64,000 nt of DNA from the NCBI GenBank assembly GCA_937862815.1, contig CALMED010000012.1:1-64000 (forward strand), given 5' to 3'. Below, piece after piece: positions 33,359 through 58,942 of the stretch; positions within the stretch are counted from its first letter, which is position 1, and each line of letters begins with the position of its first letter. The position numbers were made by a program, and so were the translations under genes. Origin of the DNA: an uncultured Chitinophagaceae bacterium. GTDB lineage: Bacteria; Bacteroidota; Bacteroidia; Chitinophagales; Chitinophagaceae. The notes beneath the pieces were generated by a model. The model worked only from the letters and a program-made list of their open reading frames with translations, was not told the DNA's origin and did not search any database.

Positions 33359-33387
33359 ATTTAATAAGTTTGCTTAACTTATTAAAT
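33359..33387. promoter_or_regulatory. Perfect 12-bp inverted-repeat operator overlapping the nagB-lmbE promoter
   Basis: Arms ATTTAATAAGTT and AACTTATTAAAT are separated by TGCTT. The -7 box TAAGTTTG (33365-33372) lies inside the left arm and spacer, so a bound repressor would block RNA polymerase. The start codon is at 33397. Similar AAGTTT / AAACTT symmetry occurs at 41635-41651; the ROK regulator at 57710 is the obvious candidate ligand. Confidence 0.65.
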
Positions 33388-33396
33388 TTTTCCTGT

Positions 33397-35322
33397 ATGG
33401 CTGCGCATCTACCGATGGACCTGAGCGACTCATTTGAACGGATTCCCACCCGCATTTTTCCGGGCGCACCGGATGGCTCCCGTTGGGTGGCGGCCCAGGT
33501 GGCGTCAACGATCCGCGAAAAAGCTTCCCGGGGGGTCCCCTGCGTATTGGGACTCGCGACCGGATCCACCCCTAAAAGTCTGTACGCCGAACTGGTGCGC
33601 ATGCACCGGGAAGAGGGGCTGAGTTTCCGGAATGTGATTGCATTCAACCTCGACGAATACTACCCCATTGAACAGGAAGCTGCACAGAGTTACTACCGCT
33701 TTATGCGAACGCAGCTATTTGATAAAGTGGACATCGACCCGTCCAATTGTCACATACCGGATGGTACCATTCCCAAAGAACAGATCAAGCAGCATTGCAC
33801 CGCGTATGAACAGCTGATTGCTGAAAAAGGCGGCATTGACCTGCAGATCCTGGGCATCGGGGTGAACGGGCACATCGGCTTCAACGAACCCGGCTCATCG
33901 CTTTATACCAAAACGCGCCTGATCACCCTCACCAACTCCACCCGCCTGGCCAATGCCTATGAGTTTGCCAACATCAGCGAAGTGCCGCGTCTTGCCATCA
34001 CCATGGGCATCAGCTCTATCTTCAAAGCCCGGCGCATCATCCTTATGGCCTGGGGCTCCGCCAAGGCCCCCGTTGTGCAACAGGCGGCGGAGGGCGATGT
34101 AACCGAGCAGGTGCCCGCATCGCTTTTGCAGAATCACGATGATGTGCAGTTTGTGCTCGATGAAGCGGCCGCCGCCGAACTCACCCGTTACAAGAGTCCC
34201 TGGCTTACCGGCGAGTGCGAATGGACACCCAACATGATGAAAAAGGCCGTTATCAACATGGCCCTGAAACTGGGAAAACCCGTACTGAGCCTCACCAGCA
34301 GCGATTACAACGAATTCGGGCTGAGCGACCTGTTGGTGGAGAAAGGAGATCACTACGACATTAACCTGCAGGTGTACTACATGCTGCGTGACAGCATCAC
34401 CGGCTGGCCGGGCGGTAAGCCCAATGCGGTGATTCCAACCCACCCCGAACGCAGTGAGCCTTATCCCAAACGGGTACTCATCTTTTCCCCGCACCCCGAC
34501 GACGACATTATTTCCATGGGCGGTACCTTTCAGCGCCTGCACGACCAGGGGCACGAAGTGCACGTAGCCTACCAGACCAGTGGCAATATTGCCGTTACCG
34601 ATGAATTTGTAACCCGCTTTATGGAATTTGCCGTAGGTTTTGAAGCCATGACCGGTATTGATAACACCAAATCCACCTCCCTTCTGCAGGAAGCCCGCAG
34701 CTACCTCACCCAGAAAAAAGCCCAGCAGGCCGATACATCGGAAATACGTTCGGTTAAAGGATTAATCCGCCGTTGCGAAGCCGCAGCCACCTGCCGGTAT
34801 GTAGGACTGAAAGAAGGCCAATGGCATTTTCAGAACCTGCCCTTCTACGAAACCGGCACCATCGATAAAAAACCGATGGGCGAAGAAGACATCCGGCTCA
34901 CCATGGAATTGCTGCGCAGGATCCAGCCCCACCAGGTGTATTGCGCCGGCGATTTTGCCGACCCCCATGGCACCCACATCGTCTGTTTTAACGTGGTTTT
35001 GGAGGCCCTGAAACGCATCAAGGCGGATGGCGATCCATGGATAACCGATTGCTGGCTCTGGCTCTATAAAGGAGCCTGGCAGGAATGGAACATGGAAGAA
35101 ATTGAAATGGCCGTGCCCATGAGCCCCGACCAGGTTCTGCGCAAACGCTTCGGCATTTTCATCCACCAGTCGCAGAAAGACATGGTTCCCTTCCAGGGCA
35201 GCGACAGCCGCGAGTTCTGGCAGCGGGCGGAAGACAGGAACCGGCAGACGGCGGAACTCTATGCCCGGTTGGGCCTCACGCACTACGCTGCCATGGAAGC
35301 ATTTGTGCGGTGGCACTACTGA
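33397..35322 (+). CDS. NagB-type glucosamine-6-phosphate deaminase fused to an LmbE/PIG-L deacetylase
   Basis: A 641-residue two-domain cytoplasmic protein. The N-terminal half (about 20-285) is a NagB domain: LGLATGSTPKSLYAEL, FNLDEYYPI and GIGVNGHIGFNEPGSS supply the phosphate loop, catalytic Asp and the His/Glu pair; the DG of the E. coli enzyme is NG here, as in many relatives. The C-terminal half (about 360-640) is a PIG-L/LmbE zinc deacetylase with SPHPDDD (His366) and DPHGTH (His524, His527). Together they could deacetylate and deaminate a GlcNAc-phosphate to fructose-6-phosphate. The fusion occurs widely in Bacteroidota; the activity of the second domain is inferred. The ATG at 33397 is chosen over an upstream TTG inside the operator. 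Converges on the next gene, 4 bp away. Confidence 0.9.
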   Translation: MAAHLPMDLSDSFERIPTRIFPGAPDGSRWVAAQVASTIREKASRGVPCVLGLATGSTPKSLYAELVRMHREEGLSFRNVIAFNLDEYYPIEQEAAQSYYRFMRTQLFDKVDIDPSNCHIPDGTIPKEQIKQHCTAYEQLIAEKGGIDLQILGIGVNGHIGFNEPGSSLYTKTRLITLTNSTRLANAYEFANISEVPRLAITMGISSIFKARRIILMAWGSAKAPVVQQAAEGDVTEQVPASLLQNHDDVQFVLDEAAAAELTRYKSPWLTGECEWTPNMMKKAVINMALKLGKPVLSLTSSDYNEFGLSDLLVEKGDHYDINLQVYYMLRDSITGWPGGKPNAVIPTHPERSEPYPKRVLIFSPHPDDDIISMGGTFQRLHDQGHEVHVAYQTSGNIAVTDEFVTRFMEFAVGFEAMTGIDNTKSTSLLQEARSYLTQKKAQQADTSEIRSVKGLIRRCEAAATCRYVGLKEGQWHFQNLPFYETGTIDKKPMGEEDIRLTMELLRRIQPHQVYCAGDFADPHGTHIVCFNVVLEALKRIKADGDPWITDCWLWLYKGAWQEWNMEEIEMAVPMSPDQVLRKRFGIFIHQSQKDMVPFQGSDSREFWQRAEDRNRQTAELYARLGLTHYAAMEAFVRWHY

Positions 35323-35326
35323 ATTT

Positions 35327-36481
35327 TCAGATATCCGCTATTTCCACCACAACCAGCCAGCGGGGCTGAACCAACCCTTCGCGTACCCAGCGGATCCAGG
35401 CTTCCTGCTCACTCTGCTCCCGTAATCCCTCGTCGTTCCACCACTCCGGACTGCACAGGCATCCCAGGGAGGGCGTATGCGGCCAGTATGGCTGGCCCGC
35501 GTAAAATCCCGGATCAATGGTGGTGCCATGGGCGATGATCTCTGTACGGCCGATACGCCCGGCCTCATAACTCTCCCACAGTTCCGCAAACTTCGCATAA
35601 GGCCCCAGCAGCCGGCGGTACGTTTCCTGCTCATCACCCGGCAGGTCAAAGAACGGCATCGCAACTCTTTCAAAAGGCATCGCCAATTGGAGATTGGTAG
35701 TCGGACCAATCCAGTCATTGTCCGACGTATCCAGACCGGTGATGCGGTAAAGTCCCTGCGGCGTGTTGCCATTGGTGAGATAAAACGGCAGATTGGTGAT
35801 GGAACGGGCCAGCTGTAAAAACTGCAATACCACCCCGTTACTATCCCGTAGCCAATCGCCCCCCGCTAACCGCATCTGCAGGTAGCCGGGCCGGTTACGG
35901 TCGCGGTGCTGGAAAGAAACCAGCAGATCCGCCCCTGGTAAAAAACCAGTGTCCAGCAGATCCGCTTTCCGGAATTGCGCTTGCAGCGTTCGGTTGTGGA
36001 ATTGCCGGTGCAAGCGGTAAAAATCAGATTGGAGAAAAGCTGAATCCAACCGCAGCGGCGCTGCATAACCGGCTTGCTGCAGGTACTCCAATGCCATTGC
36101 CTTATTCTTATGCCCCTGCAAACGGGGAAGCAATGCCGCCACCTGCCGGGCAAATTGCAGGGGATAGAGCGTGTACAGCATTTCGAGATAAGCCCGCTGC
36201 GTACCAATGCCCATTTGCGGAAGTACCTGCAGATGCCCGGGAATGAGTGTATCAAATCCGGGCGGCCGGTACAATTGCAGCTCCATGGCCCAGCAGGCGC
36301 CCAGCCATTGAGCTGCAGTTGAAGCCTGCAACGGCAGCAGCAGGGTTTGGCGTACTTGCTGGTGAAGCGCCTGTGTTACCGAATCCCGTACCGGGCGGGA
36401 AGCAAAGGGGAAAAATGTTTCCTGAGCTGTTAACCCGGAAAAAACGAGCACAAAAACAAAAATCGAGAACGCCTGTTTCAT
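35327..36481 (-). CDS. Exported protein with L,D-transpeptidase-like HG...SxGC motif
   Basis: A 384-residue protein not recognised with certainty. A signal peptide (MKQAFSIFVFVLVFSGLTAQ) is followed by about 290 residues without familiar motifs. The C-terminal region has AHGTTIDPGFYAG (His318) and PSLGCLCSPEWW (Ser338, Cys341, Cys343), which resemble the catalytic HG...SxGC of YkuD L,D-transpeptidases, although the following Arg is missing and the spacing is longer. It could be a cysteine amidase or transpeptidase acting on peptidoglycan. Last gene of the six-gene reverse operon; its ATG overlaps the NAGPA stop by 4 bp. Confidence 0.5.
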   Translation of the reverse strand: MKQAFSIFVFVLVFSGLTAQETFFPFASRPVRDSVTQALHQQVRQTLLLPLQASTAAQWLGACWAMELQLYRPPGFDTLIPGHLQVLPQMGIGTQRAYLEMLYTLYPLQFARQVAALLPRLQGHKNKAMALEYLQQAGYAAPLRLDSAFLQSDFYRLHRQFHNRTLQAQFRKADLLDTGFLPGADLLVSFQHRDRNRPGYLQMRLAGGDWLRDSNGVVLQFLQLARSITNLPFYLTNGNTPQGLYRITGLDTSDNDWIGPTTNLQLAMPFERVAMPFFDLPGDEQETYRRLLGPYAKFAELWESYEAGRIGRTEIIAHGTTIDPGFYAGQPYWPHTPSLGCLCSPEWWNDEGLREQSEQEAWIRWVREGLVQPRWLVVVEIADI

Positions 36482-37485
36482 CGCCTTTTAATCAGCACGG
36501 CACTCATCACTGCCCTTTCTGTACCTGTGCCACCGGCACGCACCGTACTCGTATTATTGACAATCAGGGCGGTTGAACCGCCTCCGTCGAGATTGATAGC
36601 ACCCTGGCAGCCGAGCGACTGCATCAATGCGGCGGTGGTGGCCAGATTCACACCCGGGTAGTTGGGCGGATTGTCGCCTTCCACTGCCAACAGCAGCACC
36701 ATGCCGGAACCGGAAAACCCTATGGCAGAGCGGGGCCGGTTAGTATTGTTATTGATATCTATCAACTCCTCTGCATCGGTAATCTGTATGGTGTTGTTCC
36801 GTATCAGCAAAGGGGAGCCGCCAATGGCCGCCGTAGTGTTCCATACAATGCCTCCTGCCGGGAAAGAAGCCGTAGGTTGCGGCTGCGGAGCTGTACCCAG
36901 CGCATTGGGACTGGGAGAGGGATAGCCGTAAATTAAATCATTACCTGCACCCACATGGTAGATCCACCCAACCTGCGGTGAACCGGCCGACGTAAGACCG
37001 AATGCGGCCCGGGTGGGGTAATACGGCACATTGCTCCCGTTGAAACTACGGGTGACCGATTTGATGTTAGGCGACAAGATGGCACCGTTGTACTGCACCA
37101 GGCTGAACGACTGGTTGGGCGATCCGAAATAGCCACCGTTAATGCCGGCAAATACCGACCCCGGCTCATCCCGCACAAAGGCCGATACCGTTTTGGCCGC
37201 GGTGGCCAGCACCGGCTTAAACTCGAACGTGGTATTGCGGCTATCATAGGCCAGACAAAAGGCCTTTATGGTTTGTCCATTGAAAACACTATCAAACTGG
37301 TACAGCTGAATCCCCTGTGGAAATGTAGTGGTGTAGGAAGTAGCCAACCTCCAACCGGCTGGTAGGGTAATGAGCGTTGTACCAGGCTGTACAGGTGTAC
37401 CAGGATTGTTATTCGAAGGCGGATTTGACTTTTTGGTACAGGCTGCCAGTTGAAGCAATAAGAGCACAGTTAGAAAGCGTATCAT
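36478..37485 (-). CDS. NAGPA-type phosphodiester glycosidase, lipoprotein
   Basis: A 335-residue lipoprotein (LQLAACTKKS, Cys16) with the phosphodiester glycosidase domain shared with the mammalian uncovering enzyme. Conserved blocks are FAGINGGYF, RSAIGFSGSGMVLLLAVEG and INLDGGGSTAL near residue 300. The family hydrolyses GlcNAc-alpha-1-phosphodiester bonds, and relatives are found in phage and cell-wall contexts. In this locus it could release GlcNAc from a phosphoglycan or teichoic-acid-like polymer. It overlaps both neighbours by 4 bp (ATGA), indicating translational coupling. Confidence 0.87.
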   Translation of the reverse strand: MIRFLTVLLLLQLAACTKKSNPPSNNNPGTPVQPGTTLITLPAGWRLATSYTTTFPQGIQLYQFDSVFNGQTIKAFCLAYDSRNTTFEFKPVLATAAKTVSAFVRDEPGSVFAGINGGYFGSPNQSFSLVQYNGAILSPNIKSVTRSFNGSNVPYYPTRAAFGLTSAGSPQVGWIYHVGAGNDLIYGYPSPSPNALGTAPQPQPTASFPAGGIVWNTTAAIGGSPLLIRNNTIQITDAEELIDINNNTNRPRSAIGFSGSGMVLLLAVEGDNPPNYPGVNLATTAALMQSLGCQGAINLDGGGSTALIVNNTSTVRAGGTGTERAVMSAVLIKRR

Positions 37486-38561
37486 TCTTCGTAAATTTTA
37501 TGCGGCTCCCGCAGGGTTTCAAAATAAAAGAAGCACTCCCCTTCAAATCCGTATTTGCGATTGAGTGCAATCATCTGTTGCAGCATCTCCGGCGATACGC
37601 GGTATCCATCGCCCAATGATGTAAGCACGCCGGGGAACACCTGTTTTTTCTGTTCGGGGCGCACCTGGCTGCTCAGCTCCTGCAACACTTTTTCATAGGC
37701 TTCGATGTTATACCGGTACAATTGCGGGATCACCACATCGGCATAGCCGCCGTTGAGCCAGGCGGGCCAGTCCTGCAGGTACTGTTCCTTGCTCCAGGGA
37801 TAGATGCTGGGAGCCCAGGACACCACGCAACTGCTGCGGGCCGCTTTCACCGCCTGGTACAATTGCTTCCCAAACATACTCAGCTGATCGGCTTTCCATT
37901 GTAAAAAGGCCGGTTCATCATGCGTTGCAGGCACCTCTTTACCGGTAGCCTTGCGATACAGCTCCCGGGTATACGGATCGTACCCCCCCTCTGCAGGCAT
38001 GGCAGGTAAGCGATCGTCGCCCTGCACACCATCTACCTTATAATTATTGACTACTTCCAGCACCAATTCGTTCATAAACTGCTGTACTTCGGGATGCAAG
38101 GCATTCCACCAGAAAAAACCATTCTTCTGCAGCAGATTTCCCTTTGCATCTCTGCCGGCCCAATGTGAATAGCGTTGCATCCACAGACCGGTACTGTCTT
38201 TATAATCGTACGAAAAACCAAACTCAAACCAGGCATGCACAGCCAGGCCTTTCCGGTGCCCTTCTTCTACAATTGCTTTGATGGGATCAAAAGAGCCGTA
38301 CACCGGATCCTGTTTCACACCAATATAGCGTTCCACCACCTTACTGGGGTACATGGTGCGGCCTTTGTTCCATACCACCACGTACAACGTATTAATGCCT
38401 TTCTGCTTGCAGAGATCTACGGTTTCATTTACTTTTTCCGGACTACGGAGGGCTTCACTGGCCACATTGGTGATCCATACGCCACGAATAGGCGGCTTTT
38501 GCGCTTCACCGCTGCAAGCGGTAAACAATAAAATGAACGAAATAGCAAAAATTAACTTCAT
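37482..38561 (-). CDS. GHL10 (DUF187) family glycoside hydrolase-like lipoprotein, copy 1
   Basis: A 359-residue lipoprotein (LLFTACSGEA, Cys16) with a TIM-barrel GHL10 domain: RGVWITNVASEAL, NTLYVVVWNKGRTMYPS, LAVHAWFEFGFS, DGVQGDDRLPAMP and WAPSIYPWSKEQYLQDWPAWL. The paired aspartates of QGDDR and the Glu of FEFG are plausible catalytic residues. GHL10 enzymes are thought to cleave amino-sugar polymers but few are characterised. A close paralogue starts at 41659. Overlaps its neighbours by 4 bp on each side. Confidence 0.85.
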   Translation of the reverse strand: MKLIFAISFILLFTACSGEAQKPPIRGVWITNVASEALRSPEKVNETVDLCKQKGINTLYVVVWNKGRTMYPSKVVERYIGVKQDPVYGSFDPIKAIVEEGHRKGLAVHAWFEFGFSYDYKDSTGLWMQRYSHWAGRDAKGNLLQKNGFFWWNALHPEVQQFMNELVLEVVNNYKVDGVQGDDRLPAMPAEGGYDPYTRELYRKATGKEVPATHDEPAFLQWKADQLSMFGKQLYQAVKAARSSCVVSWAPSIYPWSKEQYLQDWPAWLNGGYADVVIPQLYRYNIEAYEKVLQELSSQVRPEQKKQVFPGVLTSLGDGYRVSPEMLQQMIALNRKYGFEGECFFYFETLREPHKIYEE

Positions 38562-39583
38562 AAGGATGCTTTATAATCCATGTAACGGTTGTATAAGTGT
38601 GCGGCGGATGGGTACATCGACTGCGGACTCATAAAATGTGAAAATTCAAACGTAATTGCCTTGTCGTAACCGGCGCGGCGGGCCGCTTCCAGTTTCAAAC
38701 GCAGCTTTTCCCATTTGATGGGCAGAAACTTAATGGGCATATCGCGGTCAAAACTTTCAGCATTGGTCCAGCATTGCATACCGTATCGGTCGGCCATTTG
38801 CTTGTTCACCCGGAAGAAAGCATCCAGCTCATGAAAATCAATGTGCCCGTCCTGAAAAGCTACCGCGTCCACGGCACCTTGTACTCCGTCAAAAATTTCA
38901 TTCCATTCCCGCTCGTGCTCCTGTATACTAACGGTATCTGCTTTGCTGAGCTGCCCCGATGCGGCCATTACAGCTTTCTTACCATCGATCCAGGGCGAGA
39001 TAAACGTGGGCAATCCGTTACTCACCTGCTTGCACTGCATGCCCAGGGTGCGGAATGCCTCAATAGCACCCCTGGTTTTACGACTGATTTCCATACTCAG
39101 GTACCAACCGCCAAAAGAGCTGTGGTGCCCATAGCGCTGCCACACTTCATCAATTACATAACGATTGTGATCGATTTCATGCTGCATATTGCCGGTATCC
39201 CAGTAGCGGCCACTGTCGTATAATCCGAAATAAAACCGCATGCCGTATTTGCCGGCCAAAGTCAGAAACAACTCCACCAGGTCCACCGGAGGCTGGTAAC
39301 AACCTTGCTGCAGCAGGTAAGCAGAGGGATAGGTAATGAAGCGCCGGTAGCCACTACGAATCAGGATGACCGTATCAATACCCATTGCCTGCATGTGCCG
39401 AAAATCCTGTTCCCACTCCTTCTCGCTCCAGTTCTGGTGCGGAATATCGTGACTGATTTCGTCTAAAAATGTTCCGGTTATCAACATAACATTCGTTTTG
39501 TAATTGTAATGCACAAGGAGCATATCTTCCTTCACTCCTTCACTTCCCGAAGCGTTGCCAGCAACGTTCGTGATCTTCGACAT
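38558..39583 (-). CDS. DUF4434 TIM-barrel protein
   Basis: A 341-residue protein of the DUF4434 family, a predicted glycoside-hydrolase-like barrel: ITGTFLDEISHDIPHQNW, MGIDTVILIRSGY, YFGLYDSGRYWD, GGWYLSMEISRKTRGAIE and DAVAFQDGHID. The Glu of MEIS and Asp of QDGH are candidate active-site residues. There is no signal peptide from the given start. Starts at 39583, 39523 (preceded by GGAG-like sequence) and 39487 (just before the conserved region) are all possible; the first is listed because it lies 12 bp after the esterase stop. Substrate unknown, probably an imported oligosaccharide if cytoplasmic. Confidence 0.75.
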   Translation of the reverse strand: MSKITNVAGNASGSEGVKEDMLLVHYNYKTNVMLITGTFLDEISHDIPHQNWSEKEWEQDFRHMQAMGIDTVILIRSGYRRFITYPSAYLLQQGCYQPPVDLVELFLTLAGKYGMRFYFGLYDSGRYWDTGNMQHEIDHNRYVIDEVWQRYGHHSSFGGWYLSMEISRKTRGAIEAFRTLGMQCKQVSNGLPTFISPWIDGKKAVMAASGQLSKADTVSIQEHEREWNEIFDGVQGAVDAVAFQDGHIDFHELDAFFRVNKQMADRYGMQCWTNAESFDRDMPIKFLPIKWEKLRLKLEAARRAGYDKAITFEFSHFMSPQSMYPSAAHLYNRYMDYKASL

Positions 39584-39595
39584 TAACTAAATCAC

Positions 39596-40258
39596 TCATT
39601 CAATCCCTAATACCACCTCCTTCCACCTTGCATACCCCGCACCTGTCAAATGCAACCCATCATTGGTATAGCGGGCATCAAGATTTCCTTCCACATCGGC
39701 AAAGGCCGAAAACAGATCAATATAATGCACTTGTAATTCGCGGCACAGCGCTTCCAGTTCTTTATTTATGGCCTGCACCTGCCCCCGTTTATTTTGGTGA
39801 TTCGGAAATTGCGTAAACGCATTATTTGTGGGCATCAACCCTTGTATATAAATGCGGGTAGCAGCGCAGTCCCTGCGCAGGGTTTCCACAATACGGCGGT
39901 AATTCCGCAGGGTCACTTCCACCGGTATGTTGCGTGCCACATCGTTAATACCAATGAGCAGGTACAAACGCGATGGCTGGTGGCGCACCACTTCGGGCAA
40001 ACGATGCAGCAACCCAAAGGTATTGTCGGCACTGATACCCCGGTTGAGGTTGCACTGATCAGGGAACAATTCATTCCATTCACCACTATCTGTAATGCTG
40101 TCGCCCAGCCAAACCACGCAGCCTTTTTTAACCGGCATCTGCTCAAAAAAACTCAGCTTCTGATCGTAGTAATAAAAATGAAATGACGAGTCGTACTGCT
40201 GCTGTGCAGCAACCGAACCCGAAAGAACCAGCAATATGGTGAGTGTACAAAACTTCAT
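39596..40258 (-). CDS. SGNH/GDSL-family esterase
   Basis: A 220-residue exported hydrolase with signal peptide MKFCTLTILLVLSGSVAAQ. The SGNH blocks are visible: VWLGDSITDSGEW (nucleophile Ser), NRGISADNT (Gly), LIGINDVARN (Asn), and YTNDGLHLTGAGYARW with the Asp and His of the triad. In a glycan locus it most likely removes acetyl or other acyl groups from sugars, for example sialate or GlcNAc O-acetyl esters. Its ATG overlaps the MFS stop by one base (TGATG). Confidence 0.88.
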   Translation of the reverse strand: MKFCTLTILLVLSGSVAAQQQYDSSFHFYYYDQKLSFFEQMPVKKGCVVWLGDSITDSGEWNELFPDQCNLNRGISADNTFGLLHRLPEVVRHQPSRLYLLIGINDVARNIPVEVTLRNYRRIVETLRRDCAATRIYIQGLMPTNNAFTQFPNHQNKRGQVQAINKELEALCRELQVHYIDLFSAFADVEGNLDARYTNDGLHLTGAGYARWKEVVLGIE

Positions 40259-41562: not shown

Positions 41563-41581
41563 GCAGAATCGTTTTAAGAGC

Positions 41582-41651
41582 CCAAGTTAATTAATATTTT
41601 TAAAAACTATTGCTTAAAGCAAATTTTTTTAACTAAGTTTGTTGCAAACTT
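41582..41651. promoter_or_regulatory. Divergent promoter/operator between the MFS operon and the GHL10-GH92-GH20 unit
   Basis: For the forward unit, TTG (41610-41612) is followed after 21 nt by the -7 box TAAGTTTG (41634-41641), 17 nt before the ATG at 41659. The box overlaps an inverted repeat AAGTTT-GTTGC-AAACTT (41635-41651). A second palindrome TTGCTT-A-AAGCAA (41610-41622) covers the -33 element. For the reverse operon a TAACTTGG near-match to the -7 box lies at 41589-41582. Confidence 0.6.
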
Positions 41652-41658
41652 TCTTGCC

Positions 41659-42816
41659 ATGCGCATCGCTGCTGCACTGCCCATTGCCCTGCTTGGCCTG
41701 CTGAGCCTGGTCGGCTGCTCCAAAAAAAGCAACCCTGCTCCCGGAGGCGGCAACCCCGGGACGCCTACCACACCCGTATGGGACCCCAACGCCATGCGGG
41801 GCATCTGGATCACCACCACAGCCAGTACGGTGCTCGACACCCGCGAAAACATCCGCACGGCCATGCAGGCTTGTCGCACAGCCAATATCAACCACGTATT
41901 TGTAGTGGTTTATAATAATGCCCGCACCACCTATCCCAGCCAGGTGATGCAAAACCTTATTGGCGTTCCCATTCTCGAACGCTTTGCCGGCCGCGACCCG
42001 CTGCGTGAAATTATCGAAGAAGGACAAGCCGCCGGTTTAAAGGTACACGCCTGGTTCGAATATGGTTTTGCCTCTTCGTTCTCTGCAAATGGCGGTCCCA
42101 TTGTAGCCGCCCGTCCGCATTGGGCGGCCCGTGATGCCGGCGGTAACCTTACCATCAAAAACGGATTCGACTGGCTCAACGCGTTTCACCCCGAGGTGCA
42201 GCAGTTCATGATTGACCTGTTTAAAGAGGTTACCAGTAATTATAATGTAGATGGTGTGCAAGGCGATGATCGCCTGCCCGCCCTGCCTTCCAGTGCCGGT
42301 TACGATACGTATACCCTTGGCCTTTACCGGTCCGAAAACGGCGGCGCCGATCCCCCCGGTAATATAACGGACCCCGCCTGGCTGCAATGGCGGGCCCGCA
42401 AACTCAATGCTTTCTGTAAGCGCTTACGCACCGAAGTTAAAGCCATTAAACCAAATATTATGTACACCATGAGTCCCAGCCCCTATCCCTGGGGACTCAA
42501 TGAATACCTGCAGGATTGGCCCACCTGGGTGGACAGCGGATGGGTTGATGCGATTATTCCCCAATGCTACCGATACGACATTGCAGCTTACACTGCCACC
42601 ATCAACCAGCAAAAATCGTTTTACCGCAACACCGCCGTACCTTTCTACCCCGGCGTTTTGCTCCGTTCCGGCACCTACATTGCACCCGATGGCTTTCTGA
42701 CCCAAATGATTACCGAAAACCGCCGTGCCGGCTTTAAAGGTGAAGTATATTTCTTCTATGAAGGATTACCTTCGAGAAGCAGTTGGTTCCAGGGACAGTA
42801 TCCATTTATCCGGTAA
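41659..42816 (+). CDS. GHL10 (DUF187) family glycoside hydrolase-like lipoprotein, copy 2
   Basis: A 385-residue lipoprotein (LLSLVGCSKK, Cys20) followed by a Gly/Pro/Thr linker (about 25-42) and the same GHL10 barrel as the gene at 37482: RGIWITTTAST, NHVFVVVYNNARTTYPSQV, LKVHAWFEYGFAS, DGVQGDDRLPALPS and MSPSPYPWGLNEYLQDW. The candidate catalytic DD and Glu are conserved in both. The two copies are on opposite strands and differ in linker and loops, so they may act on different parts of the glycan. First gene of the forward unit with GH92 and GH20. Confidence 0.87.
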   Translation: MRIAAALPIALLGLLSLVGCSKKSNPAPGGGNPGTPTTPVWDPNAMRGIWITTTASTVLDTRENIRTAMQACRTANINHVFVVVYNNARTTYPSQVMQNLIGVPILERFAGRDPLREIIEEGQAAGLKVHAWFEYGFASSFSANGGPIVAARPHWAARDAGGNLTIKNGFDWLNAFHPEVQQFMIDLFKEVTSNYNVDGVQGDDRLPALPSSAGYDTYTLGLYRSENGGADPPGNITDPAWLQWRARKLNAFCKRLRTEVKAIKPNIMYTMSPSPYPWGLNEYLQDWPTWVDSGWVDAIIPQCYRYDIAAYTATINQQKSFYRNTAVPFYPGVLLRSGTYIAPDGFLTQMITENRRAGFKGEVYFFYEGLPSRSSWFQGQYPFIR

Positions 42817-45313: not shown

Positions 45314-45349
45314 CACTCATTCATTCACTCATTCACTCATTCACTCATG
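45314..45349. repeat. CACTCATT octanucleotide array running into the GH20 start codon
   Basis: Four near-perfect CACTCATT/CATT units end exactly at the ATG (45347-45349), which is the last unit with G in place of T. It is the reverse complement of the AATGAATGAGTG repeats at 6277 and 26551. The rest of the 190-bp spacer after GH92 shows nothing else. Confidence 0.8.
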
Positions 45350-49471: not shown

Positions 49472-51253
49472 TTACCATCCTGGGTTTTGCTTAATACCAT
49501 TGGGGTTTACATCCACCTCAAATGTAGGGATGGGCCACAATTTATACCGGTTGTTGGAATTGTTACGGGTCTGATTACGAAACCGGATCCGCTGATTCAC
49601 ACTGGCCGTATAGCTGGGTACATTATCAACATCAAAACTGGGCGTTGCAGGTGCAACGGCGGGATCAAAGGCTGCCCCCACCACCGGGAAGCTGTTGGCC
49701 TTTGCATAGATATCCCAGCGACGAAGATCGAACAAACGCAAGCCTTCGCCGCCAAATTCCACAGCCCGCTCACGGCGGATGATCGTACGCAGTTGCGCCT
49801 GGTTGGTGGTGGTTACACTGGGTTGACCGGCCCGGTTGCGTACGGCATTCAAGGCAGCCAGCACGGTACCGTCAATTTCGTTCAATTCCATTTTCGCTTC
49901 CGCATACATCAACAGAATATCGGCATAGCGCATGAGTATGTAACCGGTTTTGGTTTCCCAGGAGTATTGGGTACTATCCACATACTTACGCCAGCTATAG
50001 CCAACGCCTCCAATATTACCGGTGGCACTTACCTGCCATTGAATACCGGCAGCCTGGGCTCCGATCCAATCGTTGTTGCCGGTTACATTGTCAAACTGAC
50101 CGGTCCCCCAGTTGAACCTGCGACGAACGTTTGAATAGATATTATAAATCGTACGTTCGTTAGGGTTAACATACGGAAGTACATTTACGTTGTTTCTCCA
50201 ATTTACAGTATCGCCCTGCATAATAACCGTCCAGCGAAGACGACGGTCGCGGTTATCGCGGGGATTTGCCGGATCGTATACGGTTGACTGGTCAATACGC
50301 TGCCCATCACGTCCTTCAAATAAATCTACCAGCACCTGTGAAGGAAAATGACTGCTTTGGGAATTGGTTACCTGCCGGGGTATGGTAAGCACCACCAGCC
50401 AGTTCTGTGGATTGAGCTGATCGGTGGGATAGGTTTGATTGAAAAGAATTTCCCGGTTCACATTTGCCACTTGTCCCGCCTGCATAAAGAGGGCAGGATA
50501 ATTTGGGTTGAGGCCATACAGGTTTGTATCCATGATAGCCTTGGTGGCGACAGCAGCCGTACGGTAATCTTTAACAAGCAGGGCAAGTTTTGCTTTAATA
50601 CCCAGAGCAACGGCCTTATTAACACGGCCATTACCGATAACCGGTTGCGCATTGGCCGCATCAAAGCGGGCTACCGCCGTATCAAGGTCTCTGTATAATT
50701 CCTGAACGATGGTGGCAACCGGAGTACGGGTAGCTCCCAACACCTCACTTACAGTGGGGGGTTTGGTGTAGAAAGGCACGTCGCCAAACATATACAGAAG
50801 ATGGAAATACCCCCATGCCCGAAGTGTAATGGTTTCGGCCATAATACGACTGTAAGCTTGGGGTGTTACATTTGCCTGTCCGACGGGCATTTGATTCAGC
50901 TGCTGGTTGGCACGCTGAATCAGCCGGTATGCCTGGTTCCACGAACGGTTTACAAGGTCGTTGTTCAACAGGAAAGGACCATTCTCGCCCATGGCCACCT
51001 GGTCTTCAGCATTACCACCCCGCTTAATAGCCAGGTCGGTTGACGCTTCTACCGCAAACATCAGCGGTGTATTGTTAGGGAACACCCACATGGCGGCACC
51101 GTATACACCCACCAAACCCTGTTGCATTTCCACTTCATTGGAAAGGAAATTAGTGGCCGAGGACGCATCCAGGGGCTTTCGGTCAAGGAACTTTTTACAT
51201 CCGCCGGCACCGATCAGCACCAGTAACAACGGCATGAGATATATCTTTTTCAT
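49472..51253 (-). CDS. SusD/RagB family glycan-binding lipoprotein
   Basis: A 593-residue surface lipoprotein (VLIGAGGCKKFL, Cys19) that forms the lid of the SusC channel and binds the target oligosaccharide. Family features include KKFLDRKPL directly after the cysteine, the TPR-like region, ETITLRAWGYFHLLYMFGDVPF, LMRYADILLMYAEAKMEL, and IIRRERAVEFGGEGLRLFDLRRW near the C-terminus. The start at 51253 begins the signal peptide; an upstream ATG at 51277 is less likely. 23 bp downstream of susC. Confidence 0.95.
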   Translation of the reverse strand: MKKIYLMPLLLVLIGAGGCKKFLDRKPLDASSATNFLSNEVEMQQGLVGVYGAAMWVFPNNTPLMFAVEASTDLAIKRGGNAEDQVAMGENGPFLLNNDLVNRSWNQAYRLIQRANQQLNQMPVGQANVTPQAYSRIMAETITLRAWGYFHLLYMFGDVPFYTKPPTVSEVLGATRTPVATIVQELYRDLDTAVARFDAANAQPVIGNGRVNKAVALGIKAKLALLVKDYRTAAVATKAIMDTNLYGLNPNYPALFMQAGQVANVNREILFNQTYPTDQLNPQNWLVVLTIPRQVTNSQSSHFPSQVLVDLFEGRDGQRIDQSTVYDPANPRDNRDRRLRWTVIMQGDTVNWRNNVNVLPYVNPNERTIYNIYSNVRRRFNWGTGQFDNVTGNNDWIGAQAAGIQWQVSATGNIGGVGYSWRKYVDSTQYSWETKTGYILMRYADILLMYAEAKMELNEIDGTVLAALNAVRNRAGQPSVTTTNQAQLRTIIRRERAVEFGGEGLRLFDLRRWDIYAKANSFPVVGAAFDPAVAPATPSFDVDNVPSYTASVNQRIRFRNQTRNNSNNRYKLWPIPTFEVDVNPNGIKQNPGW

Positions 51254-51276
51254 ACTTGTATGCATTAGATGGTTCA

Positions 51277-54200
51277 TTAGAATGTTACGTTTACGCCGGC
51301 TGTAAATGTGCGCATGAGCGGATAAAATTCCGCATTGGCATTGTTGATTTCCGGATCAAATCCGCGCCAGGCGGGTGTGAGGGTGAGCAGGTTCTGTCCG
51401 CTCACAAATACCCGCAGATTAGCAATCTTCAGCTTCTTTAAAGCATCCTGAGGTAACGAATAACCCAGGTTGATGTTTTTGATGCGGAAGAAAGCAGCAC
51501 TGCGGATCCACCAGTCGCTCAGCAGGTAGTTGTTTCCTCCAAAGCCGGAAGGCAGCAGGCGGGGGAAAGTAGCATTCTGATTGTCGGGTCTCCAATGGTC
51601 TTTATGCTGTTCCAGCAGCGAAGCGGCAAAATCATTGCTGGCAAAGGGTATGGCACCGGTACCGCTCAGGAAGTTGTTGCGCATACCTACACCCTGTCCA
51701 AAAATGTTCAGATCAAAATTGCCGTATCCGATGTTCAGGTTCACGCTGTATTCATAACGGGGAAAGGCATTGCCCAGGAAGGTACGGTCAAATGCATCCA
51801 CAATACCATCGGGTTTGCCATCCGGACCACTGATATCGGCATACTTCATATCACCCGGCTTTGCTCCCTGTGCAGGATTGGGATTCCATACCTGGCCAAA
51901 TTGAACCGGTGAATTCTTTACGTCGTTGGAGTCGCGGAAAAAGCCCAGTGCCTGGTATCCAAAATAGGAGTTAAGTGCCTGCCCGGCTGTTGTGCGGATA
52001 CCATCCCCAATAAAGGGCAGTCCATCTACAAGACCGGTAACCTTGTTCTTCACATCCGATACCATTACCGTAGCATCCACCCGCCACTTTTTGAAGCTTT
52101 GCTTGTAGTTCATGGTCAACTCCCAGCCCCTGTTTTCCATGGTACCGGCGTTAACAAACGGATTGGCCAGCCCACCGGCAGATTGCGGAAGCGTACGTTG
52201 CAGGATCATGTCCTTCAGCGAACGGACAAAGTAATCGGCCGTTACGGTGAAATACTTCAGGAAGCTTACATCCAATCCCACATTCCATTGCTGCGAGCGC
52301 TCCCACTGTAATTCCGGGTTGGGGAACTGCAAGAGGGCTACACCGAAAGTAGTTTGATTATTGAAATACGCATTGGTCCCGTTCAGCGGATTGTTGTAGA
52401 GCGAGTTCTGGTAAAAGGCGTCAAACACATAGTTGTTGGAACCGATGTTCTGGTTGCCATTTACACCCAGGGAAGCCCGGAGTTTACCAAAGCTGATTAC
52501 ATCGGTAAGGTTACCAAAGAACTTTTCGCGGGAGAAAACCCAACCGGCCGATGCCGAACCAAAGGTACCCCACTGCTTATCGATCGCCTGCGAAAAACGG
52601 CTTGATGCATCACGGCGTCCGTTTAATTCCAACAAATACCGGTCATCATACCCATAATTAACACGGCCAAAGAAACCTGCCAGTGCCAATTCGCTTACAC
52701 CGGCATTATTGGTTTGTGCACCGGTTCCTACATTCAGGAAAGGCTGGTTGGGGTTGGTAAAGCCTAAACGGGTAGCACCAAAGAAGTAGTTGCGGTAGTA
52801 TTCACTCTGGCCACCCGCCATCACCTTTATGCTGTGCACCTCCTTGATGCGGGTGCTGTATGCAGCCTGTCCCAGCCAGGTACGGTACAAATCATCCCTC
52901 CAGCTTTCGGTTAACTGAGTCGTGCCGGGCCATTGACCAATAAGGTCATAGCCCCGTGTAACCAGATTCGGTTGATAAATATCCACGTTCCGGATAAAAG
53001 ACTTGCTGTAAGGATTGCGGGTTTCACGACCCCAGTATCCTTCAATTTCCAGGCCCTTTACCGGATGAAAGTTAAATCCAAAGCGCGTTAACAGGTTGTT
53101 GCCTTCTGTTTCAGAGGTACCTGCACTTTCCGCCATTGCAATGGGGTTGCGGTTGTTACTCTGTGCGGCCGTACCGTACATTCCGGGTCCATACTTGCCG
53201 CCGCCGATGGCCGGCAAGCCAATCGCCTGGCGGATGATGAATTCGGCGGATCCTGTGGAAGGTGTTACGGTGAAATTATTGGTATAAGCAAGGTTACCGG
53301 TGAGCGTTAGTTTATCGCTCACTTTGAACTCCGGATTGATCCGCAGGTCGTAACGCTTGAAATTTGTATTCTGTGTGAGGCCGCGTTGGTCAAAAAATGT
53401 AAAGGATGTGAACATATTAAGCCGTTCCCCCCCGCTTGTCATCTGCACATTGTGGTTGTGCATAAGACCGCTGTTGGTGAGTACTTCCCTGAGCCAGTCG
53501 GTATCAATGATTTCAAGATTATCGGCAGGCGTTGTACGATACCGGTCAATTAATGCCTGCGGGAATACCGATGCAGCCGGATTACCGGTCCGGTTTTGCT
53601 CGGCTACATTGCTCAGCACCATGTGATCAATGGCACTAACCCGCTGCGGAATGGAGGTAAAATCCTGCTTGGTAACAAAGTTGTTATAACTCAGCTGCAA
53701 GCCTTTTTTCTGTGCCCGCTTCGTTTTAACAATAATCACACCGGCAGACGCACGGTTACCATAGATGGCCGTGGATGCAGCATCTTTCAGCACGGTTACA
53801 CTTTCAATGGCGTTGGGATCAATCTGGTTTAATGCATCCAGACCGGTGCCGGTAGGAAGCTGCAGTCCATCAATAATCACCAGCGGAGTACTGTTACCGA
53901 GAATGGAACTCTCACCCCGGATACGGATACCGGCACCATCGGCACCGGGACGTCCGGACTGTTGCTGTACCGTTACACCGGGAGCGAGGCCCTGCAGCAC
54001 CTGGCTGGTACTGGAAACCTGCCGCTTGGTAAGTGCAGCGTTGTTGAGTTGAACCAACGAACCGGTAAGGTTGGTACGGCGCTGGGTACCATAACCCACC
54101 ACCACTACTTCACCCAGGTCGCCTGCGGTGGTTTGCAGCACCACATCTATGGCAGAACCCGTCACGGTCACTTCTTTCCGCTCGAATCCGATCCCGGAGA

Positions 54201-56343: not shown

Positions 56344-56349
56344 TATGAT

Positions 56350-57561
56350 TTAATCATTCAATGAAGCAGTGGTTTTCCAAACCTGGTACAAGGCACGGGG
56401 TATATGAAAGCAGCCCTTCCATTTGCCGCCCTTCAGGGGCAGCAGCACTTCGCCGCGCCGGTTGAGGTAGCCAAACCACTCGCCATGTTCCGGATCACGA
56501 AAATGCTCCCACGTGTAATTGTGAACTTTTTCAAACCATGCGGCACAGCGCTCATCGCCGGTTAAGGCGTAACCCTTGGCCAGGGCTACCAATGCCTCTA
56601 CATGTACCCACCAGAGTTTCTGGTCCCATTCCAGTTGCTGGGTGGGATGGCCCTGGATGTCGAGAAAATAAAAAATGCCATCGTGTACCGGATCCCAGCC
56701 ATACTCCACTGTATGTAACAGGATGTCGGTTGCCTTCCGGATCAGGGCCGGATCCTTCATGCGTACGCCCAGGTCCATGATAAACCACATGGATTCAATG
56801 GCATGGCCGGGGTTAAGCAGGCGACCATCGAAGCAATCACTGAAGCTGCCATTGGGGTTCACGTTTTCTAAAATGAGCCCGGAGTCTGGCTGGTAAAAGA
56901 CCTCCATCACTTCATGCACCACTTCGGGGATCAGCCGGTTTACCTCGGCGCTGCCAATTACAGGCTCCAGTTCCAGTGCGAGGTTGCAAAGGATCATGGG
57001 CAGACTGAAATTCTTGAGCGGACGGGTGCCGGGCACTGCTTTGTTGTACCCCCCCTTCCAGTTATGACGCCGGCGAAGTATATTATGGTAGGTATCGATG
57101 GCTATATCCTTCCAGACGTCGGAGGGCTGTACCCGGTCGAGTGCCGCAAAGGCCATGGTGGCGAAGCAGTCGCTGAAAATATTATACGGTTGTATTAAAG
57201 GACGGCCATCAGCCGTAAGGGAGAAGTACCAGTTTCCTTCTGCATCCCGCCCATGCTGCTGCATAAATCGGGCGCCGTGCAGGGCCATGTCCAGCCACTC
57301 GGGCCGCGCTTCCACCTGGTGATACATATAACTGAAGCACCAAACCTGGCGCCCCTGGAGCCACATGAATTTATCGGTATCGTACACATTACCGGTGCGG
57401 TCGAGACAGGTAAAGAAGCCGCCATTCACTTCATCCCGGCTTTTGCTCAGCCAGAAAGGCAGTATATTTTGCAGCAACTCATCACGATACCTGCCGCCAA
57501 AAGCAGCGAGCAGGTTTGGGGTGGCAGCAGTCGTTTGATCGTTGATGGAAGGAACTCCCAT
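56350..57561 (-). CDS. AGE-family N-acylglucosamine 2-epimerase
   Basis: A 403-residue cytoplasmic alpha6/alpha6-barrel epimerase. Conserved blocks include WLQGRQVWCFSYMYH, NIFSDCFATMAFAA, LLNPGHAIESMWFIMD, KLWWVHVEALVALAKGY and KGCFHIPRALYQ, which contain the two histidines used as acid/base. In this locus it most likely interconverts GlcNAc and ManNAc, but family members also act on mannose or cellobiose, so specificity is open. First gene of the reverse operon that includes susCD, divergent from the ROK regulator. Confidence 0.88.
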   Translation of the reverse strand: MGVPSINDQTTAATPNLLAAFGGRYRDELLQNILPFWLSKSRDEVNGGFFTCLDRTGNVYDTDKFMWLQGRQVWCFSYMYHQVEARPEWLDMALHGARFMQQHGRDAEGNWYFSLTADGRPLIQPYNIFSDCFATMAFAALDRVQPSDVWKDIAIDTYHNILRRRHNWKGGYNKAVPGTRPLKNFSLPMILCNLALELEPVIGSAEVNRLIPEVVHEVMEVFYQPDSGLILENVNPNGSFSDCFDGRLLNPGHAIESMWFIMDLGVRMKDPALIRKATDILLHTVEYGWDPVHDGIFYFLDIQGHPTQQLEWDQKLWWVHVEALVALAKGYALTGDERCAAWFEKVHNYTWEHFRDPEHGEWFGYLNRRGEVLLPLKGGKWKGCFHIPRALYQVWKTTASLND

Positions 57562-57570
57562 ACAAAATTT

Positions 57571-57600
57571 AATTAATAAGGGCCTAAAGTTATTTTAATT
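57571..57600. promoter_or_regulatory. Weak AT-rich inverted repeat over the AGE-susCD operon promoter
   Basis: On the reverse strand TAACTTTA (57592-57585) is a one-mismatch -7 box, 24 nt before the ATG at 57561. It lies inside an imperfect repeat whose arms, TTAATAAG and TTATTTTAA, recall the stronger operator at 33359-33387. The remaining 148-bp divergent spacer is AT-rich. Confidence 0.35.
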
Positions 57601-57697
57601 TATTTTAAACTACCAAATTCTTTTTAAATTTTTTTATTTATAACAGACATATCTGCTCCTTTCGTTAATTAGTACCGCAAAAAAGCGACTGTATTAA

Positions 57698-57705
57698 TAC
57701 CTTTA
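57698..57705 (+). promoter_or_regulatory. -7 box of the ROK regulator
   Basis: TACCTTTA, one mismatch from TAnnTTTG, ends 4 nt before the ATG at 57710, predicting a leaderless transcript. Confidence 0.4.
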
Positions 57706-57709
57706 TAAC

Positions 57710-58942
57710 ATGAGCACGACCCATAGTTTAATGGAGGTTTTTTCCGATGAGACCGTAAGCGGCGGTGTGGCTTATAAGAATAAAACGCTCAAAAAGGAAA
57801 TTATCAATCAACTGGACCGTTCCGGCGACCAGACCATTGCCGACCTGTCGAGGGAGTTGAATATCAGTACGCCCAAGATCACCAGCCTGGTGAACGAACT
57901 GATCCAGGACGGCCTGCTGCAGGACCTAGGTAAGATGGATTCAACGGGTGGTCGCCGGGCCAGCATCTACGGATTGGGGAGCGACGCCTGCTTTTTTGTG
58001 GGCGTAGATGTTAAACGGTATTATATCAATATTGGCTTGCTGGATTTTAAGAAGCACCTGGTGACCATCCGGGAAAAGGTTCCCTACCCGCTGGAAAACA
58101 CCCAGCAGTCGCTCACGGCCCTTATCAAGAGTATCCGGAAATTCATCCACGAATCCGGGGTGGCCTATGAGAAGGTTCTTGGTATCGGCATTAACCTGTC
58201 GGGGCGGGTCAACAACATCTCCGGATACAGCTACAGCTATTTTCACTTCCAGGAAGAACCGCTGGCCCAGATCATTCAGCAGGAGTTGGGAATCAAAACA
58301 TTTCTCGAAAACGACTCCAACGCCATGGCCTTCGGAGAACTGCATTACGGGGTGGTGACAACGGAACGGAACATTCTCTTTATCAACCTCGACTACGGAA
58401 CCGGCTGCGGCATCATTATCAACCGCGAACTTTATTATGGGAAAAGCGGCTTTAGTGGCGAATTCGGTCATATCCCTTTCTACAACAATGAAATCATCTG
58501 CGGCTGCGGGAAGAAAGGTTGCCTTGAAACCGAAGTTTCCGGGCAGGCCTTGTTGCGGCAGGTGCGGGAGCGGATCGCAGCAGGATCCAGCTCCAAGCTG
58601 TTGCAAAAGGGAAAAAAAACAGAGGACCTGAAACTGGAAGACCTGATCGGGGCAGCCCTTTCTGAAGATGTACTGATGATCGAATTATTGGCTGAGATGG
58701 GCGAAAAACTGGGTAAGGCTCTGGCGGTATTGATCAACCTTTTTAACCCCGAACTGGTAATCCTGGGTGGCACCCTTTCCGAAACGGGCGATTACCTGCG
58801 ACTGCCCACCCGCAGTGCGCTCAACAAATACTCGCTGAGCCTTGTAAACAGCGACACCCAGGTAAAACTTTCCAGGTTGGGCGAAAAAGCCGGGGTGCTG
58901 GGCGGCTGCCTGATTGCCCGGAGCAAGGTTTTATCACTCTGA
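57710..58942 (+). CDS. ROK-family transcriptional regulator (NagC/XylR type)
   Basis: A 410-residue protein with an N-terminal winged helix-turn-helix (about 27-85: TIADLSRELNISTPKITSLV, then GGRRAS) and a C-terminal ROK domain. The usual ATP motif DxGGTK is replaced by VDVKRYYIN (about 99-107), as in repressors. The sugar-side residues are kept: ENDSNA with Asp202, and the zinc motif CGCGKKGCLE (Cys264, Cys266, Cys271). It therefore likely senses a sugar or sugar phosphate and controls the neighbouring operons. It lies at the right end of the locus, divergent from the AGE-susCD operon. Confidence 0.9.
   Translation: MSTTHSLMEVFSDETVSGGVAYKNKTLKKEIINQLDRSGDQTIADLSRELNISTPKITSLVNELIQDGLLQDLGKMDSTGGRRASIYGLGSDACFFVGVDVKRYYINIGLLDFKKHLVTIREKVPYPLENTQQSLTALIKSIRKFIHESGVAYEKVLGIGINLSGRVNNISGYSYSYFHFQEEPLAQIIQQELGIKTFLENDSNAMAFGELHYGVVTTERNILFINLDYGTGCGIIINRELYYGKSGFSGEFGHIPFYNNEIICGCGKKGCLETEVSGQALLRQVRERIAAGSSSKLLQKGKKTEDLKLEDLIGAALSEDVLMIELLAEMGEKLGKALAVLINLFNPELVILGGTLSETGDYLRLPTRSALNKYSLSLVNSDTQVKLSRLGEKAGVLGGCLIARSKVLSL

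What the first reader, a model, noticed from the sequence alone, without database searches (positions are those of the whole stretch)
33359..58942. Composite amino-sugar/phosphoglycan utilisation locus with an unusual gene combination
Eighteen features in five transcription units combine SusCD, GH92, GH20, two GHL10 barrels, a NAGPA-type phosphodiester glycosidase, DUF4434, an SGNH esterase, an AmpG-like importer, an AGE epimerase, a NagX-like acyltransferase, an L,D-transpeptidase-like protein, a NagB-LmbE fusion and a ROK regulator. NAGPA, GH92, GH20 and NagX/HGSNAT all have lysosomal counterparts that dismantle phosphomannosyl N-glycans and glucosaminoglycans. The set suggests a target bearing GlcNAc-1-P and mannose, for example a phosphoglycan, fungal mannoprotein or teichoic-like polymer. 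Peptidoglycan turnover is a competing idea, given the AmpG-like and transpeptidase-like members.
Basis: partly seen in the sequence, partly recalled or inferred. Interest (0 to 1): 0.75.

Follow-up and report, generated by a model that had tools for sequence, protein, structure and literature searches.

The report
Conserved amino-sugar phosphoglycan utilisation gene cluster
This run of 16 genes is a conserved set, found in largely the same order in related bacteria, that is predicted to take apart an amino-sugar polymer, likely one with phosphate links, and feed on the sugars; part of it also occurs in a gut bacterium, near genes whose natural food is still unknown.

Summary
It is not a chance composite: the order AmpG-like, SGNH, DUF4434, GHL10, NAGPA, beside a divergent GHL10 and DUF5009/SusCD, recurs in several genera. 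Peptidoglycan recycling is weakened: the AmpG-like transporter scores 131 bits against a 350-bit cut-off, occurs in 8 of 147 family genomes (all 8 carry DUF4434), and in other DUF4434 loci is replaced by a sodium symporter or sugar porter (63 of 75 loci have exactly one type, none two). The GHL10s lack the Arg motif of the peptidoglycan lyase Cwp19. A phosphate-linked amino-sugar glycan remains possible but unproven. I propose that outer enzymes trim the glycan, the AmpG-like protein imports a small amino-sugar oligosaccharide, cytosolic DUF4434 (a clan GH-A-like barrel) cleaves it, and an epimerase and NagB-type enzyme feed glycolysis. [quoted passage not shown] New variant of a known kind; no target glycan shown.

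The parts
33370..35322 (+). NagB-LmbE (PIG-L) fusion, predicted cytosolic glucosamine-6-phosphate deaminase-like enzyme
   Evidence: NCBIfam PRK02122 976 bits, TIGR00502 nagB 267 over cut-off 237; next to the operon also in L037 (82% identical); in 11 of 75 named DUF4434 loci
35327..36481 (-). Secreted protein with YkuD-like motifs (TPQGLY, HGT...TPSLGC); L,D-transpeptidase-like; accessory
36478..37485 (-). NAGPA phosphodiester glycosidase, predicted lipoprotein
   Evidence: PF09992 89.5 bits; NLDGGGS in 17 of 18; PDB 3ohg E 2e-11 and NAGPA structures
37482..38561 (-). GHL10a, predicted lipoprotein, TIM-barrel glycosidase family
   Evidence: PF02638 209 bits; Cwp19 5oq2 E 1e-15
38558..39487 (-). 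DUF4434, predicted cytosolic clan GH-A-like glycosidase (ORF opens at 39583; likely start Met33)
   Evidence: PF14488 287 bits; 4h41 = BT_0435 554 bits; 11 of 13 aligned relatives have ORFs beginning there, the other two carry longer leaders
39596..40258 (-). Secreted SGNH esterase
   Evidence: PF13472 103 bits
40258..41562 (-). AmpG-like MFS importer (TTG start; first ATG at 41493)
   Evidence: TIGR00901 131 bits, cut-off 350; in 8 of 147 family genomes
41563..41658 (.). A+T-rich divergent promoter region
   Evidence: Between AmpG-like and GHL10b; dyad test
41659..42816 (+). GHL10b, predicted lipoprotein
   Evidence: PF02638 215 bits
42988..45156 (+). GH92 alpha-mannosidase, predicted lipoprotein (ORF opens at GTG 42820; likely start ATG 42988 or 42994)
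   Evidence: PF07971 550 bits; PDB 6f8z E 2e-174; start region
45347..47806 (+). Divergent GH20-like beta-hexosaminidase, secreted
   Evidence: PF02838 only; lacto-N-biosidase structure E 1e-7; catalytic D-E pair 114 of 114
47983..49395 (-). DUF5009, HGSNAT/NagX-like transmembrane acyltransferase
   Evidence: PF16401 341 bits; PMC12423673 passages
49472..51277 (-). SusD-like lipoprotein
   Evidence: PF07980 157 bits
51277..54420 (-). SusC-like TonB-dependent transporter
   Evidence: TIGR04056 801 bits
54451..56343 (-). FAD_oxidored predicted lipoprotein, role unknown
   Evidence: PF12831 302 bits; in 24 of 75 named DUF4434 loci
56350..57561 (-). AGE N-acylglucosamine 2-epimerase
   Evidence: NF052547 667 bits over cut-off 600; in 42 of 75 named DUF4434 loci
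57710..58942 (+). ROK regulator (NagC/NanR-like)
   Evidence: PF00480 181 bits; NagC equivalog 202 bits, below its cut-off 650

Best explanation
The region is one conserved polysaccharide-utilisation locus that is predicted to break down an amino-sugar glycan that likely carries phosphodiester links, O-acyl groups and alpha-mannose. Shown: the gene set, its conserved order, and the tie of the AmpG-like transporter to DUF4434. Inferred: SusC/SusD takes up fragments; NAGPA opens HexNAc-1-phosphodiester bonds; SGNH removes O-acyl groups; DUF5009 N-acetylates bare glucosamine from cytosolic acetyl-CoA; GH92, the GH20-like enzyme and two GHL10 barrels trim the chain; the AmpG-like protein imports a small amino-sugar oligosaccharide; cytosolic DUF4434 cleaves it as a clan GH-A-type glycosidase (Glu165 after strand 4, Glu276 after strand 7); AGE turns the N-acetylmannosamine released into N-acetylglucosamine; NagB-LmbE passes the sugar phosphate to glycolysis; the ROK protein represses until an amino-sugar signal appears. 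The most likely target class is a bacterial teichoic- or capsule-type polymer with HexNAc-1-phosphate and N-acetylmannosamine (untested).
Against: No substrate evidence of any kind. NAGPA or the phosphoesterase is in only 17 of 75 DUF4434 loci, so phosphate is not a general feature. The target class rests on AGE plus NAGPA, both by homology. The YkuD-like protein and FAD oxidoreductase have no clear job here. Co-regulation is unproven: the best operator-like dyad of relatives does not match the window's own promoters. The 75 loci are the closest of 565, so counts lean to close relatives.
Confidence: 0.45

Rival explanations
1. The locus degrades and salvages peptidoglycan or Gram-positive wall fragments: GHL10 cuts glycan strands, the YkuD-like protein trims peptides, SGNH de-O-acetylates, NAGPA removes wall polymers from MurNAc-6-phosphate, AmpG imports muropeptides.
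For: GHL10 protein Cwp19 is a lytic transglycosylase (PMC6016235 passages) and DigH degrades denuded glycans (PMC12288456 passages; that DigH is GHL10 is recalled); YkuD-like motifs next to NAGPA; the genome holds MurQ over its cut-off beside a protein weakly like a GlcNAc kinase (30 bits, cut-off 370); the AmpG-like gene is the only TIGR00901 match in the genome.
Against: AmpG-like is far below the AmpG cut-off, absent from 139 of 147 family genomes counting two marginal hits as absent, and swapped for other transporters beside DUF4434. Locus GHL10s lack the NP[YF]R motif that the genome's two other GHL10s keep. The YkuD-like gene was not found next to NAGPA in L015, L056, L068 and L118.
Confidence: 0.17
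2. The locus targets eukaryotic glycans: N-glycans, fungal phosphomannan or protist glycans with GlcNAc-1-phosphate on mannose.
For: NAGPA, GH92, a GH20-like enzyme and an HGSNAT-like protein together.
Against: GH92 and GH20-like are in only 10 and 4 of 75 named DUF4434 loci; GH92 keeps the ordinary acid motif; AGE unexplained. No endo-N-glycanase is among the 16 genes.
Confidence: 0.15
3. The DUF4434-AGE-transporter-ROK core is a sialic or related nonulosonic acid pathway, with DUF4434 in the place of NanA.
For: The B. thetaiotaomicron ROK regulator BT0433 was predicted as NanR, 'Sialic acid; N-acetylglucosamine' (PMC3878776 passages); DUF4434-transporter-AGE order resembles nanLET (recalled).
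Confidence: 0.07
4. Two neighbouring loci with separate targets: a SusCD-FAD-AGE-ROK amino-sugar unit and an AmpG-to-NAGPA unit.
For: A terminator-like hairpin lies between SusD and DUF5009 at 49439-49418 (such sites are no more frequent over the region than in shuffles); in G181 the AGE-SGNH-DUF4434 and the AmpG-NAGPA parts lie on different contigs.
Against: Both halves adjoin in L014 and in L040+L015 of G023, other genera; AGE, FAD, ROK and DUF4434 adjoin in many other loci.
Confidence: 0.1

Closest known systems
Bacteroides thetaiotaomicron BT0433-BT0454 region
   Same: ROK regulator BT0433, DUF4434 BT_0435 (PDB 4h41), SusC/SusD-type genes, DUF5009, two family-10 glycosylhydrolases and a sugar porter (PMC10434189 passages); [quoted passage not shown]
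   Different: GH89 BT0438 and a calcineurin-like phosphoesterase are listed there, and a sugar porter rather than an AmpG-like importer; I saw no NAGPA, GH92, GH20-like or YkuD-like gene in those passages but did not read the region itself
Cwp19 (GHL10 lytic transglycosylase)
   Same: Pfam GHL10, TIM barrel, Asp-Asp motif
   Different: Arg132 motif replaced by HAW[FM]E[FY]GF in the 24 locus-type rows displayed
Bacterial NAGPA/DUF2233 proteins and human uncovering enzyme
   Same: Pfam domain over cut-off, NLDGGGS
   Different: Predicted lipoprotein in a SusCD locus; activity untested
HGSNAT / NagX transmembrane N-acetyltransferases
   Same: DUF5009 groups with HGSNAT (PMC12423673 passages)
   Different: NagX equivalog only 34.8 bits against 480; no DUF5009 protein has an experimentally confirmed function according to that paper

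Membership tests
Polysaccharide utilisation locus | SusC/SusD pair next to glycosidases and a regulator | tested here: met
Polysaccharide utilisation locus | Blocks regulated together | tested here: inconclusive
   Dyad TAATAA-N6-TTATTA in 12 of 23 ROK-side intergenic regions (shuffle mean 0.97; best of any dyad in 60 shuffles 9); in 7 of 13 AmpG/GHL10b regions at <=2 mismatches (shuffle mean 2.5); not matched in the window's own two regions. The N3 version is in 10 of 13 (2.67), the window's AmpG/GHL10b region included; several other top dyads show no excess
AmpG muropeptide permease | Score over the TIGR00901 cut-off (350 bits) | tested here: not met
   131 bits
AmpG muropeptide permease | Muropeptide transport | not testable with these tools
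   Distribution speaks against it: 8 of 147 genomes, all with DUF4434
GHL10 peptidoglycan enzymes (Cwp19/DigH type) | GHL10 domain over cut-off | tested here: met
   209 and 215 bits
GHL10 peptidoglycan enzymes (Cwp19/DigH type) | Conserved Arg132 (NP[YF]R motif) | tested here: not met
   All 24 displayed rows have HAW[FM]E[FY]GF; 4 of 4 other GHL10s examined have NP[YF]R; Arg132 role from PMC5765458 passages
NAGPA phosphodiester glycosidase | PF09992 over cut-off and NLDGGGS motif | tested here: met
   89.5 bits; 17 of 18
NAGPA phosphodiester glycosidase | Cleavage of GlcNAc-1-phosphodiester | not testable with these tools
   needs an assay
L,D-transpeptidase (YkuD) | Pfam YkuD match | tested here: not met
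   0 of 24 members match YkuD at E<=10
L,D-transpeptidase (YkuD) | YkuD fold and His...Gly-Cys site | tested here: inconclusive
GH20 | Pfam PF00728 catalytic domain | tested here: not met
   only PF02838 at E<=0.001
GH20 | Catalytic Asp-Glu pair | tested here: met
   114 of 114 aligned sequences, those over 780 aa among 120
GH92 alpha-mannosidase | GH92 domains and acid/base motifs | tested here: met
   550 and 254 bits; GNEPSH and GNDDCGQM 10 of 10; catalytic assignment recalled
N-acylglucosamine 2-epimerase (AGE) | NF052547 over cut-off | tested here: met
   667 against 600
Sialic acid catabolic cluster | N-acetylneuraminate lyase in the genome | tested here: not met
   one PF00701 protein, dapA 291 bits over cut-off 206, nanA 99 bits against 382
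Clan GH-A glycosidases (DUF4434) | TIM barrel with conserved Glu after strands 4 and 7 | tested here: met
   E165 after strand 157-161 and E276 after 270-274, both invariant in 14 rows; motif patterns in 96 and 95 of 98; distance between the two residues not measured

The most novel reading that the evidence does not exclude
DUF4434 founds a new glycosidase family that releases N-acetylmannosamine in the cytosol, and this locus is a dedicated machine for eating HexNAc-1-phosphate polymers (teichoic- or capsule-type) of other bacteria; the same core explains the orphan, in-vivo-induced BT0433-BT0454 region of the human gut symbiont B. thetaiotaomicron.
Probability: 0.2. Interest if true: 0.8.

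Novelty: new variant of a known kind. Interest (0 to 1): 0.5.

Why it matters
DUF4434 is the most conserved protein of the core locus in most relatives compared (67-81% identity to the window copy in the 13 relatives aligned; compare) and is found from soil and water bacteria to gut Bacteroidales (record titles). It has a solved structure, titled only 'putative alpha-L-fucosidase'; 0 papers in the held library name DUF4434. The locus ties it to an importer, an N-acetylhexosamine epimerase and, in a subset, phosphate-acting enzymes, which makes its substrate a short list that can be tested. If the phosphoglycan reading is right, wall or capsule polymers of other bacteria are a dedicated food source of Bacteroidota.

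Tried and rejected
Sialic acid route: no NanA. GH89 alpha-GlcNAc theme, suggested by BT0438: PF05089 in 21 of 50 genomes tested (50 of the 80 named loci were submitted); I compared coordinates for only two (L108, L128), where GH89 is not near DUF4434; dropped. Mannose-1-phosphate GH92: acid motif intact (the Gln variant is recalled). Peptidoglycan recycling: see rivals. Operator motif: an EM search gave weak patterns anchored on G and C; at width 24 the held-out regions beat all 200 shuffles, at 26 all but 5, at 20 and 22 they did not, and I do not trust the patterns; a dyad count did better but its best dyad does not match the window. YkuD by profile comparison: no significant score. FAD oxidoreductase: only two PDB matches, to about 39 residues of dihydrolipoyl dehydrogenases. 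DUF5009: only designed repeat proteins; the AmpG-like protein: no PDB relative at E<=0.01. Search for BT0435-BT0437 in papers: 0. Teichoic acid with PUL terms: 7 papers, none on point from title and abstract start; 'wall teichoic acid' + 'linkage unit' + 'phosphodiester glycosidase': 0. Rows dropped: 5 of the 80 named loci (L061, L073, L095, L117, L122) show no DUF4434 ORF after my overlap filter and are outside the 75.
Full report
What is there. Between 33370 and 58942 lie 16 protein-coding ORFs in five strand blocks, typed by Pfam and NCBIfam: NagB-LmbE | YkuD-like, NAGPA, GHL10a, DUF4434, SGNH, AmpG-like | GHL10b, GH92, GH20-like | DUF5009, SusD, SusC, FAD_oxidored, AGE | ROK. In the second block four of five neighbouring pairs overlap by 1-4 bases; DUF4434 and SGNH are 12 bases apart by ORF ends, 108 if DUF4434 starts at Met33. 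This looks like one coupled operon. Signal peptides or lipobox-like ends read by eye place NAGPA, both GHL10s, GH92, SusD and FAD_oxidored as lipoproteins and SGNH, the GH20-like and the YkuD-like proteins as secreted; DUF4434 from Met33 has none. Homologues in L026 and L039 begin with a Tat-like leader, so location may differ between relatives.

One locus, not a chance mix. Blast of the window proteins against ORFs of fetched regions gives the same order elsewhere. L014 (G102): FAD SusC SusD DUF5009 | GH92 GHL10b | AmpG SGNH DUF4434 GHL10a NAGPA YkuD-like. L040 then L015 (adjacent stretches of one contig of G023): ROK | AGE FAD SusC SusD DUF5009 | GHL10b | AmpG SGNH DUF4434 GHL10a NAGPA. L036 and L038 (same genus): DUF5009 | GH92 GHL10b | AmpG SGNH DUF4434 GHL10a NAGPA YkuD-like; L037 the same with NagB-LmbE next; L035 the same without a NAGPA or GHL10b match. 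L019/L020 (G077) and L024 (G181) hold parts. Named records L056, L059, L068 and L118 add GH20-like beside GH92. GH92, GH20-like, YkuD-like and NagB-LmbE are thus accessory; AmpG-like/DUF4434/GHL10a/NAGPA, usually with SGNH and a divergent GHL10b, is the core.

The genus. Same-genus genome G003 has a 5,119,652-base contig, the length given for the contig behind the Lacibacter sediminis protein P0074, so the genus is probably Lacibacter, family Chitinophagaceae. This is an inference from a length match.

The transporter is not AmpG. It scores 131 bits against a cut-off of 350. Among 147 family genomes it is found at E<1e-100 in 8, plus two marginal hits; all 8 are among the 23 genomes with a DUF4434 match, 21 of them over the Pfam cut-off. 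The chance is 1.1e-7 if genomes were independent, which they are not. In 75 named loci with DUF4434, 19 carry the AmpG-like gene, 18 an SSF symporter, 26 a sugar porter and 12 none that I could type by BLAST against one example of each; none has two. L103 carries SSF-DUF4434-GHL10a-NAGPA, the same operon with the importer swapped. The simplest reading is that all three import the substrate of DUF4434.

What travels with DUF4434. Of 75 named loci: AGE 42, SGNH 38, DUF5009 37, SusC 37, ROK 26, FAD 24, NagB-LmbE 11, NAGPA 10, calcineurin-like phosphoesterase 8; any GHL10-type protein 47. NAGPA and the phosphoesterase occur together only in L069. In L069, L016 and L017 NAGPA, and in L058 and L100 the phosphoesterase, lies between a GHL10-type gene and DUF5009. 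A published survey of surface calcineurin-like phosphoesterases notes fusions to NAGPA (PMC11188070, passages). The counts come from the 80 best of 565 confirmed loci, so they lean towards close relatives.

GHL10. Cwp19 is a lytic transglycosylase (PMC6016235, passages), and its structure paper names Arg132 and Asp196 as likely active-site residues (PMC5765458, passages). The locus proteins keep the Asp pair (GDDR in 35 of 35) but, in the 24 rows displayed, have HAW[FM]E[FY]GF where four other GHL10s examined have NP[YF]R. Peptidoglycan activity therefore cannot be carried over. A GHL10 of some kind is in 143 of 147 family genomes.

The epimerase. AGE scores over its equivalog cut-off of 600 here (667) and in the Bacteroides oleiciplenus locus (726). 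The genome's only PF00701 protein is DapA, so sialic acid lyase does not supply ManNAc. A glycan that itself contains ManNAc would explain AGE; some HexNAc-1-phosphate capsules and teichoic linkage units contain it (recalled).

DUF5009. [quoted passage not shown] An N-acetyltransferase makes sense if the glycan has bare glucosamine.

Nearest known system. In B. thetaiotaomicron, BT0433 is a ROK regulator predicted as NanR for sialic acid and N-acetylglucosamine (PMC3878776, passages and section 10); BT_0435 is DUF4434; BT0438 is a GH89 alpha-N-acetylglucosaminidase (PMC8225759, passages); BT0446-BT0449 are DUF5009, family-10 glycosylhydrolase, calcineurin-like phosphoesterase and family-10 glycosylhydrolase; BT0451-BT0454 include SusD, a TonB receptor and a sugar porter (PMC10434189, passages). 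[quoted passage not shown] SusC BT_0439 was detected in galactooligosaccharide and milk-oligosaccharide cultures (PMC5238430, passages). That family-10 means GHL10 is my reading, and I did not read this genome region itself.

Regulation. A dyad TAATAA-N6-TTATTA lies in 12 of 23 ROK-side intergenic regions against a shuffle mean of 0.97, and in 7 of 13 AmpG/GHL10b regions at up to two mismatches against 2.5. The sequences are related, the dyad was picked from the ROK set, and the window's two own regions do not match it; only the N3 version matches the window's AmpG/GHL10b region. It is a lead only.

Verdict. A real, conserved, uncharacterised utilisation locus: a known kind (PUL) in a new variant. 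The mechanism up to 'amino-sugar oligosaccharide imported and cut by DUF4434' is fairly well grounded but inferred; the target glycan is a guess with reasons.

Noticed in passing
window 36478-42816 and L024, L035-L038: NAGPA, GHL10a, AmpG-like and GHL10b are 76-84% identical to G181, a different genus, but only 55-68% to four same-genus genomes; horizontal transfer or a misplaced contig is possible.
   Followed up: partly
L135 and L136 (G000 contigs C10 and C19): The two contig ends are 100% identical over 15,956 bases, so the assembly holds redundant contigs; this doubles the MurQ hit and may explain part of the 8.5% contamination figure.
   Followed up: yes
L135:3562-5310: A protein weakly like GlcNAc kinase (30 bits, cut-off 370) next to MurQ, perhaps a MurNAc catabolic pair outside the locus.
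   Followed up: partly
L070:11014-12252 and relatives: A secreted-looking protein of about 412 aa without Pfam match recurs near DUF4434 in 13 of 75 named loci.
   Followed up: no
window 45347-47806: The GH20-like family (Pfam sees only domain 2) has 200 scored relatives; the few that bear names are Chitinophagales and some other Bacteroidota such as Saprospiraceae and Flavobacteriaceae. It may deserve its own family.
   Followed up: partly
L116:6213-7739 and 37 others: GHL10 proteins of the type with a DUF4985 tail in DUF4434 loci have neither the NP[YF]R motif nor a W-x-E-x-G motif (38 of 38): a third GHL10 subgroup.
   Followed up: no
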